The notes beneath the pieces were generated by a model, which saw only the letters and a list, made by a program, of their open reading frames with translations, ran no database searches and was not told the origin of the DNA. DNA of 64,000 nucleotides from Candidatus Chloroploca asiatica (GTDB lineage Bacteria > Chloroflexota > Chloroflexia > Chloroflexales > Chloroflexaceae): contig NZ_LYXE01000086.1 in the NCBI RefSeq assembly GCF_002532075.1, forward strand, positions 1-64,000, given 5' to 3'. The translations under genes were made by a program, and so were the position numbers. This document shows, in pieces, positions 53,373 through 57,192 of this stretch (position 1 is its first letter; each line of letters starts with the position of its first letter).

Positions 53373-53611
53373 CGCGCCCAAACCCACGCTCCTGGGGGCG
53401 GGAGGGCATGGCCCGCGTGGGCGGGCCATCAGGCGGACGGTGATCGACGGCAGTTACGCTTGGTGAAGCGCAAACGTTTCAGCCAAACTTCCTGGCGATA
53501 ACCTTGGCGCATCAAGGTCTCTGGGAACAACGTGATCGCCTCGACAGCAGCTAGCACAGGTGGAAGGTAGCCCGCCCTCTTTGGTTTCAACGTGACTGCG
53601 CCATCATCGCC

Positions 53612-54394
53612 TCATTCTTGCGGACGTGATACGAGGGAACGTTCTGACCAGATTTCAAGATCATCGATCAGGAATTGCATGGTGAGTGGGGCCTCACTGG
53701 ACGTTTTTTCAAACCGAGCAAGCACCGCCAGACCTAACAGATCGGTGGTGGCATTTTCACGCAAATTGAAGGCAATGGTCTGCCAACGACCCGGTGTTTG
53801 GGGAAGCCCTTCGCAGATATATTCACCACCATCAGGACGCACGCAGAGTACGGCATACGTTATGCGCACCCCTGTGTATGCTGGCCAGTAGACCCGGGCC
53901 ACAATGGCATTGGCCTGAAAGCGTGGCGGTTGCGGTACATTGTCCAGGACATGAATGGCATGCAGATCAAACTCTTCGGTCGATGAAATTGGGGCTGAAA
54001 AACTGAGCGCTCTGCGCCCAGTAAATCCTGGGTCACGCAGTTCAATCTGTTGATTAGACGAAGCTCCATCGCCCGATGCCCAGAGCTTCAGATCAACTGG
54101 TTGCTCGAAGGTGTAGTAAGCAACCGTCTGTGTCCGTATGGGTTGGGTTGCCGCATCACGGTTGAAGTAGGTATACAGAACCAATGGCACCACAGCCACC
54201 AAGGCTCCGATGACGGCTCCCAGCAACGCGAATTGCCACCATGGGCGCGTAACCGGAACGGTTGCGGAGGTTGCGGAGTGGGCCGACGAACGCTCGATAA
54301 ACTTGACCACCAGTGGCCCAATAATGGCCGTAATGATCGCTGTCGTCACGGAACTAGCCAGGCTGATCAACGCAATGAGGAGCGTATCCGACAT
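53612..54394 (-). CDS. Membrane-anchored protein with extracytoplasmic beta domain
   Basis: 260 residues. Two hydrophobic segments lie near the N-terminus (LIALISLASSVTTAIITAII and FALLGAVIGALVAVVPLVLY). From about residue 90 follows a predicted beta-sandwich (TVAYYTFEQPVDLKLWASGD, RWQTIAFNLRENATTDLLG, QFLIDDLEIWSE), similar in style to carbohydrate-binding-like jelly rolls. It is monocistronic on the minus strand within a plus-strand island and of lower GC. No family recognised. The beta domain probably faces outside. Confidence 0.65.
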   Translation of the reverse strand: MSDTLLIALISLASSVTTAIITAIIGPLVVKFIERSSAHSATSATVPVTRPWWQFALLGAVIGALVAVVPLVLYTYFNRDAATQPIRTQTVAYYTFEQPVDLKLWASGDGASSNQQIELRDPGFTGRRALSFSAPISSTEEFDLHAIHVLDNVPQPPRFQANAIVARVYWPAYTGVRITYAVLCVRPDGGEYICEGLPQTPGRWQTIAFNLRENATTDLLGLAVLARFEKTSSEAPLTMQFLIDDLEIWSERSLVSRPQE

Positions 54395-54726
54395 CGACGA
54401 CCTTCCCTTTCTGTGGCGATTCTGCGCCCATCGTTTGTCCGTGCTTGAGGAGCGGCTGCGCTGAGCTACGTCTAAAGCACCGTGGCTGATCGGCCCACCT
54501 ACCCAGGCTCCCTAGGAAGAAGATCCGATAAGCATGGCTTGCTGTGCTTTGAGTTCCTGGTACGACTTGGTCGCGTAGTCATCTAACTCCCTTGGGATTT
54601 TATGGAAATAGCCCGTAAAACCCAGGAGCTTTAGCCCTGGGAGAGAAGGGCTTCACCCGCTTGAGCGGCTTTAGCCCAGACTAGCACAAATTTGCGTTTT
54701 AAACAAGGACGTGCTATGCTTAACCT

Positions 54727-55833
54727 ATGCGAAAGAGTTTCAAATACCGCATCTACCTCACGAACGGCCAACGACGCATCCTTGAGCAGCAGCTTGAGGA
54801 GTGTCGTTGGGTGTATAACGAGACGCTTGCCGAACGCAAGCGGGCGTACGAGGAACGAGGCGAGTCGCTTCGGTTGTACGACACGCAAATGATGCTGCCG
54901 GTCTGGAAGATGACTCGTCCGTCGCTCACGTTGGTGCATAGTCAAGTCCTTCAAAACGTAAACATCAGGGTGGATCTCGCATTCCAAGCCTTCTTTCGTC
55001 GGGTAAAAGCGGGCGAAAATCCGGGCTATCCCAGGTTTAAAAGCTTCGGTCGGTACGACTCGATCACCTATCCGCAGTACGGGAACGGTGTGCGACTGGA
55101 CGGCGAGCGGCTGATCCTCTCGAAAGTCGGCGCGGTGCATGTCGTGTTGCATCGCCCGGTGGAAGGCGCACCCAAGACGGTCACACTCCAGCGGTCGCCA
55201 ACCGGCAAGTGGTACGCCTGCTTCTCGTGCGAAACGGAAGCGAACAAACTGCATCCGGTAGACAAGATCGTCGGCATTGACGTGGGACTGGCGTCGTTTC
55301 TCACCACATCCAGCGGCGGAACGGTTCCTAATCCTCGGTTCTACCGCAAGGACGAGGCAGATCTGGCGCGTGTTCAGCAACGATTGAGTGATGCGAAGAA
55401 CCAACAAGACTGGGTTGCGTACCGCAAACGAAAGCGAGCAGTCGCTCACATTCACGAGCGAATTGCAAACCGGCGCACCGATTTTGCTCACAAGCTCAGT
55501 CGCGTGATGGTAAACACCTATCAAGTGATTGCCCTTGAGGATTTGGCCCCACTGGAGATGGGGCGCAGCCGTGGGATGCGCAAAAGCATTCGAGATGTGG
55601 CGTGGAGCCAGTTTGTCAGCATGACGTGCGTCAAAGCGGAAGAAGCTGGACGCACGGTGGTGTTGGTAGACCCCGCGTACACCTCTCAACGATGCTCGTC
55701 CTGCGGCGAACGCGTGAAGAAGACGTTGAGCGACCGCACCCACGCCTGTCCGCACTGCGGGCTGGTATTGGATCGGGATCATAATGCGGCGCTCAACATT
55801 CTGCATCGGGGTCTCCAGCAACTTCGTTTGTAG
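54727..55833 (+). CDS. tnpB: TnpB, RNA-guided nuclease of IS605-type element
   Basis: 368 residues. The N-terminal domain KSFKYRIYLTNGQRRILEQQ with VYNETLAERK is followed by the RuvC-like nuclease: Asp in VGIDVGLASFLT (about residue 184), Glu in IALEDLAPLEMG (about 279) and Asp in DRDHNAALNI (about 351). The zinc finger reads CSSCGERVKKTLSDRTHACP, then CG. All three catalytic acids and the four Cys are present, so it should be active. A promoter TTGCGT-N17-TATGCT (54692-54720) ends six bases before the ATG, so the transcript is nearly leaderless. TnpB cuts DNA guided by an RNA from the element's right end. Confidence 0.95.
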   Translation: MRKSFKYRIYLTNGQRRILEQQLEECRWVYNETLAERKRAYEERGESLRLYDTQMMLPVWKMTRPSLTLVHSQVLQNVNIRVDLAFQAFFRRVKAGENPGYPRFKSFGRYDSITYPQYGNGVRLDGERLILSKVGAVHVVLHRPVEGAPKTVTLQRSPTGKWYACFSCETEANKLHPVDKIVGIDVGLASFLTTSSGGTVPNPRFYRKDEADLARVQQRLSDAKNQQDWVAYRKRKRAVAHIHERIANRRTDFAHKLSRVMVNTYQVIALEDLAPLEMGRSRGMRKSIRDVAWSQFVSMTCVKAEEAGRTVVLVDPAYTSQRCSSCGERVKKTLSDRTHACPHCGLVLDRDHNAALNILHRGLQQLRL

Positions 55834-55889
55834 TCGTATGCGTGTGGGGCGGCACACTCTGAAGCCCAGGTGCTTGATCCCTGGGAGCC
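55700..55889 (+). ncRNA. Candidate omega RNA (reRNA) scaffold
   Basis: In IS605-type loci the guide RNA derives from the 3' end of tnpB and the right end, with the guide taken from the flanking DNA. Here that region ends with the hairpin CCCAGG...CCTGGG at 55865-55885. The guide would start at about 55890 (GTCACGGATCGGAAGGTAC). The 5' limit is a guess. Confidence 0.45.
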
Positions 55890-56289
55890 GTCACGGATCG
55901 GAAGGTACTCTGTTCGATCACCTTGTTCCCAGGTTGCCACCATGGCTTTGTAGGCTGATGCATGGACGATACATCTCAGGAGACAGGCCGGCCTCTCTTT
56001 TTCACGAATGAGCTGCGCTTTAATGAGCTGCGCTTTGTGGATAATCAGGTCTTCGCTGATCTGATTGAGGGGAACAAAAACATGGATGACCCACACGCGC
56101 CATGCGGCGAGGGTTGCTGCATCAGGGGTCTGATCTGGGGCGAAGAGATCGTTTGTGTCAAGCTTCGCGCGCAGTGCTTGGAGGAACATCGCGCCTGCCT
56201 TCGATGCAACCTACAAGGGGCCATAACATTCGTTCAGCATGCGGTTGATCAGTTCTCAACGCTCTTTTCTGCGCACTAATGCTCACTCA

Positions 56290-57192
56290 TTGCGTTTCGT
56301 GATCCAGGAGCCGATCAGGGCAAGGAACACGGTTACCACCTATGGAGATCATTTCGATCCTCATGGCAGCTTGCTTGGGTCATGCTGATCACAACGCATG
56401 CGCGTATTGTCTCATATGGCGTAGCTGAAGGAAGATCTGCGCCTCCTTCGTCCTCACCCGCTGCCGGGCTAGCAGGCTGATACGCAGGCCGCACATGGTT
56501 GCGGCCTGCCGTGCGGCGGGCAGGCATCGAGCCCGCCCGCCCCACCTGCGCCCCTGCGCAGGGTGGTCGCCGCCATCCGGCGGACGACGCTGCCGCGTGG
56601 CCTGCCCCAACGGAGGTGCCCGCGCCCTGGCAGGCTCAAGCCCGGGCTAGGCGAGGAACCCCGCAACCTGATGCCGAGGCCCCGACGCCGCACGACCCCA
56701 CCCACGAGGGAGGGCCACGCACCGCTCAGGCCAGGCCACGATCCCCCACCGCTGCCGTTGCGCGCGCCATCCATTGTGCGCCTGCGGCAGCATGGTCACG
56801 GGGGCTGCCGCCACCCGCCCGCCATGCGGGACCCACCCCCGCCGGGCCGGGCGCATGGCGGGGGGCGGGCCGGGCCTGGCGGGCCGCAGGCGGCCCCGCC
56901 CGCCCCCATCGTTGCGTGGGGGGCCTGGTCACGAGGCGGCGGGTGACCAGGCCCCCACGCCCCGCCCGGAAGGAGTGGAAGGTGCGTGCAGCAGGGCTCC
57001 GCAGCATACCACCTTGCGCCTCGCTCGCCGGAAGCGGCACACCTGCGGCGGGGCGGCGGCTGTGCCCCCAGGCCTGGGGGAGGCCGCCCCGCCTGGCTGC
57101 GCTCGCGCCGGCGGCTCGGGAAGCGCGGCGGTGGGGGCCGCAGGCACCTGCTGGCGCACTGGGCGTCAGCGTTGTGCTGTTACGGAGACCCC
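56290..57192. other. Long GC-rich stretch without a supported gene
   Basis: About 900 bp at very high GC. All six frames are largely open but give Ala/Pro/Arg/Gly-rich translations with no domain (for example 56499-57353 plus, 56726-57208 minus). Short inverted GC stretches abound. I see no defined element. Confidence 0.5.

What the first reader, a model, noticed from the sequence alone, without database searches (positions are those of the whole stretch)
54512..56189. TnpB-only element inserted in a conserved gene, with exact boundaries and a readable guide
The minus-strand gene continues in frame across a clean deletion of 54602-55889 (PIRD joined to KIPREL). This gives the element limits and therefore the predicted guide, starting at about 55890. 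The TnpB has all RuvC and zinc-finger residues. A functional guide would target the empty site and so favour re-copying of the element.
Basis: partly seen in the sequence, partly recalled or inferred. Interest (0 to 1): 0.56.

Follow-up and report, generated by a model that had tools for sequence, protein, structure and literature searches.

The report
TnpB-only jumping gene, readable target code
A small bacterial mobile element carrying only the RNA-guided DNA cutter TnpB sits in an already broken, uncommon gene; its relatives show where it starts and ends, and suggest that the DNA letter choosing the insertion site changes together with the protein letters thought to read that site.

Summary
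(1) The limits are 54604-55894, not 54602-55889: the target is TTAT (54600-54603), the right end is CCGTCAC, and the predicted guide starts at 55895. A 95-96% identical relative in a sister genome occupies a site that is empty in this genome and a third congener, and the join is exact. (2) The host gene is not conserved. It is a remnant with three in-frame stops, from a sporadic family; the syntenic locus of the sister genome lacks it. (3) No cognate TnpA was found in the three congeneric genomes. The element itself is a new member of a known kind. Reading the ends of relatives gave more. The left-end base before the hairpin is Watson-Crick to the last target base in 59 of 60 cases, the IS608 code. 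TnpB residue 54, aligned with a TAM-contact residue of ISDra2 TnpB, goes with the same base in 17 of 18. The one exception is this window's TnpB: a TTAC-type residue beside a TTAT target. Its own donor joint may therefore be cut poorly. Independent origins are few and TAM preferences are untested.

The parts
54599..54603 (+). Target site TTTAT kept at the left flank; predicted TAM (core TTAT 54600-54603)
   Evidence: TTAN immediately before the left end in 60 of 68 pattern matches among held loci (one of the 68 is a chance match); exact consensus match at 54600
54604..55894 (+). Whole element, 1291 bp, no target duplication
   Evidence: Ends of relatives; natural empty sites of a relative copy; length 1291 by script
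54604..54726 (+). Left end; guide tetranucleotide AAAA just 5' of the hairpin CCCAGG...CCTGGG
   Evidence: Alignment of 23 left ends, covariation with target, DNA fold z -1.99
54727..55833 (+). tnpB, 368 aa, RuvC motifs and zinc ribbon intact
   Evidence: NF040570 328 bits, Pfam, ISDra2 TnpB chains E 4e-55, dN/dS 0.14-0.16 against 6 relatives
54874..54888 (+). TnpB codons 50-54 (L50...Q54), aligned with ISDra2 Y52/S56 which contact the last TAM base
   Evidence: Alignments; contacts as stated in PMC10097598
55838..55894 (+). Right end and 3' part of the predicted omega RNA: nested stems GGCGGC/GCCGTC and CCCAGG/CCTGGG, guide GAAG, cleavage site TCAC
   Evidence: Alignment and consensus fold of 20 right ends; no Rfam match; fold energy of the longer 155-nt stretch not better than shuffles
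55895..55914 (+). Predicted 20-nt guide, GGATCGGAAGGTACTCTGTT
   Evidence: First bases after the conserved right end; length by analogy with ISDra2
55895..56339 (-). 5' part of the broken host gene; in-frame stops at 56211-56213, 56256-56258, 56283-56285
54512..54603 (-). 3' part of the broken host gene, ending in a stop codon

Best explanation
A TnpB-only (IS1341-type) member of the IS200/IS605 family. Shown by comparison: the ends, the precise insertion 3' of TTAT, and the IS608-type code in which the left-end tetranucleotide AAAN just before the hairpin is complementary at its last base to the last base of the target. Inferred: a Y1 TnpA acting in trans peels out and pastes the element as single-stranded DNA. 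TnpB processes the 3' end of its own transcript into an omega RNA whose guide begins at 55895, and cuts the empty donor joint TTTAT+GGATCGGAAGG..., so that repair from an occupied sister copy restores the element. Also inferred: this copy was retargeted from TTAC to TTAT by a single guide-base change (G to A) that its TnpB has not followed, so its self-targeting may be weakened.
For: TnpB family and intact motifs. Conserved ends in relatives. A 95-96% relative in G002 (contigs C164 and C151) at a site that is empty in G000 and G001, with an exact join GCATTTAG|A(A/T)CAAATG. Guide/target complementarity 59 of 60, reached by 0 of 100,000 shuffles. The relative in G013 is a complete LE-tnpA-tnpB-RE element with TnpB 84% identical. 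dN/dS 0.14-0.16. The G002 copies on C5 and C25 have G at the guide base and sit at TTAC; the first 20 bp of the window's left end differ from theirs only there, and the C5 copy's TnpB start (50 residues) is 98% identical.
Against: No expression, RNA or cleavage data. No cognate TnpA (67% or more) in G000, G001 or G002, so present mobility of this copy is unproved. The energy of the folded right end is not better than shuffles. The empty-site comparison concerns a sister copy on two contigs, not this locus; at this locus the sister genome lacks the host gene.
Confidence: 0.82

Rival explanations
1. A stranded, non-mobile remnant: ends and TnpB are intact but no TnpA in the cell can move it, and TnpB is kept only for a while or by chance.
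For: One TnpB of this clade in the genome; five Y1 transposase loci, those aligned at most 44% identical to the cognate TnpA.
Against: Nearly identical copies occupy other sites in a congener that also lacks a cognate TnpA; coding sequence open and constrained between species.
Confidence: 0.35
2. The TnpB has been taken over for a host or element role other than donor-joint cutting (for example RNA-guided regulation).
For: TnpB-only layout; single copy in this genome.
Against: All three RuvC acidic positions and the zinc ribbon are intact, the family's transposon ends are conserved, and the syntenic locus of the sister genome lacks the element.
Confidence: 0.05
3. The link between TnpB residues 50/54 and the target base is shared ancestry of a left-end segment, without any role in TAM reading.
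For: On well supported branches only one independent pair can be counted; the segment tree puts the TTAG set together; left end and the TnpB start lie within about 300 bp in TnpB-only copies and can travel together.
Against: The two positions are the ones aligned with ISDra2 residues that contact the -1 base. The rest-of-protein tree does not hold the TTAG set together (AU p 0.0086 without L245). Within TTAT elements 3 of 4 show I/L instead of Q.
Confidence: 0.45

Closest known systems
ISDra2 (IS200/IS605) TnpB, Deinococcus radiodurans
   Same: Same protein family over 2-362 (E 4e-55); inserts 3' of a short motif without duplication; guide from the right flank (PMC8612924 passages)
   Different: Target TTAT/TTAN instead of TTGAT; no tnpA; residues at the aligned TAM contacts differ
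IS608 of Helicobacter pylori
   Same: Guide code: GL AAAG/CL TTAC and GR GAAT/CR TCAA there (PMC5934647 passages); here GL AAAN/CL TTAN' and GR GAAG/CR TCAC
   Different: Here three natural target versions (TTAC, TTAT, TTAG) within one family; window copy lacks tnpA
IS1341-type TnpB-only elements
   Same: tnpB alone between hairpin ends, 1291 bp (PMC9956272 gives 1252-1393 bp for the short ones)
   Different: Close relatives with the same ends still carry tnpA, which places it inside an IS605-type family
SisTnpB7 IS605 elements of Sulfolobus islandicus
   Same: TTTAA insertion site and TAM; scaffold ends in UUCAC before the guide (PMC11043419 passages), compare GTCAC here
   Different: Archaeal, not a close relative by any search made here

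Membership tests
IS200/IS605 family | Subterminal hairpins with guide tetranucleotides pairing with the flanking target | tested here: met
IS200/IS605 family | Insertion 3' of a short motif, no target duplication | tested here: met
   Empty sites of a sister copy
IS200/IS605 family | Y1 TnpA moves the element | tested here: inconclusive
   Absent from this copy; present in relatives with the same ends in other genera
IS1341-type (TnpB only) | Only tnpB between the two ends | tested here: met
RNA-guided TnpB nuclease | RuvC D-E-D and zinc ribbon | tested here: met
RNA-guided TnpB nuclease | Omega RNA with guide from the right flank | tested here: inconclusive
   Conserved right-end stems in 20 sequences, one pair with changes on both sides; no Rfam match; no transcript data
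RNA-guided TnpB nuclease | TAM-dependent double-strand cleavage | not testable with these tools
   Needs biochemistry

The most novel reading that the evidence does not exclude
In this family two separate codes for the same site are coupled: the DNA guide in the left end that tells TnpA where to insert (AAAG/AAAA/AAAC for TTAC/TTAT/TTAG) and the TnpB residues that read the last TAM base (Q54 for C, I/L54 for T, K54 with W/F50 for G). The left-end module carrying both has been exchanged between elements. Copies that changed only the DNA guide, such as this window's (TTAT with Q54) and a sister copy (TTAG with an unchanged TnpB start), have escaped or weakened their own RNA-guided self-targeting.
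Probability: 0.45. Interest if true: 0.68.

Novelty: new member of a known kind. Interest (0 to 1): 0.5.

Why it matters
The element is ordinary, but its family offers natural near-identical copies that differ at one guide base and in target. That makes two questions testable: whether TnpB TAM reading has to follow TnpA target changes, and which residues to change to re-set a TAM. It also gives exact occupied and empty sites for a TnpB-only element in a genus where no cognate TnpA was found; a paper seen here calls the autonomy of IS1341-type elements unclear (PMC9956272).

Tried and rejected
Empty site at this very locus: the syntenic region of G002 (C13, 95-96% identical in its long matches at 49.8-64 kb) lacks 54384-56368 and 53672-54234, so the host gene is missing there; G001 gave only matches to element sequence. 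A direct nucleotide-level empty site for this copy was not found; intact host-gene homologues are at most 39% identical.

Empty site for the TnpB-less copy of G006 (L110): relatives have about 2.4 kb more between the flanks, so it gave no clean join. Right flanks C128 and C140 did not match the G000 locus; C151 did.

Rfam: no match up to E 1. RNA fold energy of 155 nt: z +0.73, no support. Wider relatives (24 loci of viral contigs, 15 plasmid records, 4 phage records): too distant for the left-end code to be read, so they neither support nor oppose the residue-54 idea; the plasmid and phage records were not opened.

Independence of the residue/target link: 17 of 18 fit, but on starred branches only one independent pair exists, so the shuffle result (0 of 100,000) overstates it. 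Left out of the 18: three copies with TnpB cut off at residues 49-50 (L100, L145, L241); L100 (TTAG with L50) speaks against a strict rule at residue 50. The rule 'I/L for T' was named after seeing the data.

Full report
What is there. Window 54727-55833 (+) encodes a 368-aa TnpB. It matches NF040570 (guided_TnpB, 328 bits) and the Pfam OrfB_IS605, HTH and Cas12f1-like TNB models. The nearest natural solved structure is ISDra2 TnpB (8bf8/8h1j, E 4e-55, residues 2-362). The RuvC motifs GIDVGL (from 183), IALEDL (from 268) and LDRDHN (from 348) and the CxxC pairs (from 323 and 341) are intact. Against six relatives dN/dS is 0.14-0.16; this speaks for the lineage, not for activity of this copy.

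Limits. In relatives the left end begins right after TTAN and the right end stops at CCGTCAC. Applied to the window this gives 54604-55894, target TTAT at 54600-54603, guide from 55895. An independent test came from a sister genome of the same genus, G002. Its contigs C164 and C151 carry the two halves of a copy whose left end is 96% and right end 95% identical to the window's. The flanks are contiguous and unoccupied in this genome (C181, GCATTTAG|AACAAATGCC) and in G001 (C83, GCATTTAG|ATCAAATGAC); the occupied copy reads GCATTTAG|element|ATCAAATGCC. The two contigs were paired through this homology; they are not one contig. The closest intact host homologue (L051) has the same length across the join as the corrected version.

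Host gene. Read with stops as X, the minus-strand frame aligns with intact homologues from its start (VVTVFLALIGSW...), but has stops at 56211-56213, 56256-56258 and 56283-56285. Homologues were found in 3 of 158 class genomes including this one, one of the other two being weak (E 0.003). 18 loci came from the one-per-species collection and three from Streptomyces plasmid records. No Pfam or NCBIfam model matched. It is an accessory gene already broken, or broken since; the order is unknown. In G002 the syntenic segment 54384-56368 is absent.

Mobility. In the relatives sample 23 of 61 genomes have a TnpB match at E 1e-60 or better. Of the 21 left ends with a right end in reach, two are the same G013 element; the 20 distinct elements are 3 with tnpA and tnpB, 8 with tnpB only, 1 with a shortened tnpB and 8 with no or a 37-aa trace of tnpB. 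A cognate TnpA (67-99% identical) occurs in 5 of 61 genomes: G009, G013, G045, G046 and G057. In G000, G001 and G002 the best Y1 proteins are at most 44% identical. These are draft assemblies, so absence is provisional. TnpA acting in trans is what Sadler et al. propose for similar sets (PMC7290912, passages); whether TnpB-only elements are autonomous is called unclear in PMC9956272 (passages).

The target code. IS608 recognises TTAC by pairing with a tetranucleotide AAAG just 5' of the left hairpin, and its target can be reset by changing that guide (PMC5934647, passages). Here a pattern search of held loci gave 68 matches. One is not a left end (L172). At the fixed distance 60 have TTAN; in 59 the guide base is complementary to N (C-G 41, T-A 10, G-C 8) and one is C-A (L215). 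0 of 100,000 shuffles reached this. Of the other seven, five have TTAN at a shifted distance with a matching base (judged by eye), and two (TTGC, TTTC) match at the last base. Relatedness was not removed from this test, but closely related copies in one genus differ together in guide and target: window AAAA/TTAT, G002 C5 and C25 AAAG/TTAC, G002 C164 AAAC/TTAG.

TnpB follows, mostly. ISDra2 residues Y52 and S56 contact the last TAM base (PMC10097598, passages). Under three alignment settings they align with positions 50 and 54 of this family. TTAG elements have W or F at 50 and K at 54 (8 of 8); TTAC or TTGC elements have L or V at 50 and Q at 54 (6 of 6); TTAT elements have I or L at 54 in 3 of 4. 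The exception is the window (L50, Q54, TTAT). A tree of residues 90-368 does not group the TTAG proteins: with L245 included the AU test gives p 8e-68, probably driven largely by that distant row; without it p is 0.0086. A tree of residues 30-84 does group them (0.997). This fits exchange of a left-end module carrying both the DNA guide and the TnpB segment. Starred branches give only one independent pair, so the link is a lead, not a proof.

Consequence. The published model is that TnpB re-cuts the donor joint so that the element is restored (PMC8612924, passages). For this copy the donor joint is TTTAT followed by GGATCGGAAGG. Its TnpB looks like those of TTAC elements, so cutting of its own joint may be reduced. 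TnpBs can be tolerant (PMC11043419, passages), so the opposite is possible; the TAM assay decides.

Literature. I searched the held library nine times and saw no paper in the listings or passages that describes joint variation of the TnpA guide base and TnpB TAM-contact residues; many subscription papers are not held, and the engineered resetting of IS608 targets is known.

Noticed in passing
L142, L212, L215, L216, L218, L222, L223, L224, L225, L226, L227, L229, L230, L232: About 51-bp mini-elements: target, left-end tip with guide, one hairpin and the right-end CCGTCA(C/T), nothing else; 14 among held loci, with guide and target matching in all but L215. They resemble single-hairpin REP-like units.
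   Followed up: partly
G000 C126 140476-141612 (L002, L008): A second, distant TnpB (27% identical over 152-361) behind a left end whose hairpin region is 81% identical to this one; similar left ends in G001 C11 and G002 C136.
   Followed up: partly
G000 C48 84-238 (L003): A right-end remnant of this family split by a palindromic insertion of about 100 bp that begins AGACTGCTGAAAAAGT.
   Followed up: no
G000, G001, G002; query L100:601-1500: A palindromic repeat of about 75 bp near the G002 insertion site gives most of 85-95 matches in each of the three congeneric genomes.
   Followed up: no
window 53400-56370 against G002 C13: An otherwise closely syntenic region shows ragged loss in G002: 53672-54234 and 54384-56368 are missing, and about 2.7 kb extra lies between 53466 and 53508.
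   Followed up: partly
left ends in L100, L104, L112, L115, L117 against the others: The outer left-end stem AGCCC/GGGCT is flipped to AGGGC/GCCCT in most TTAG elements; the G002 C164 copy has the flipped tip but the unflipped inner partner, as after an exchange of the tip alone.
   Followed up: partly
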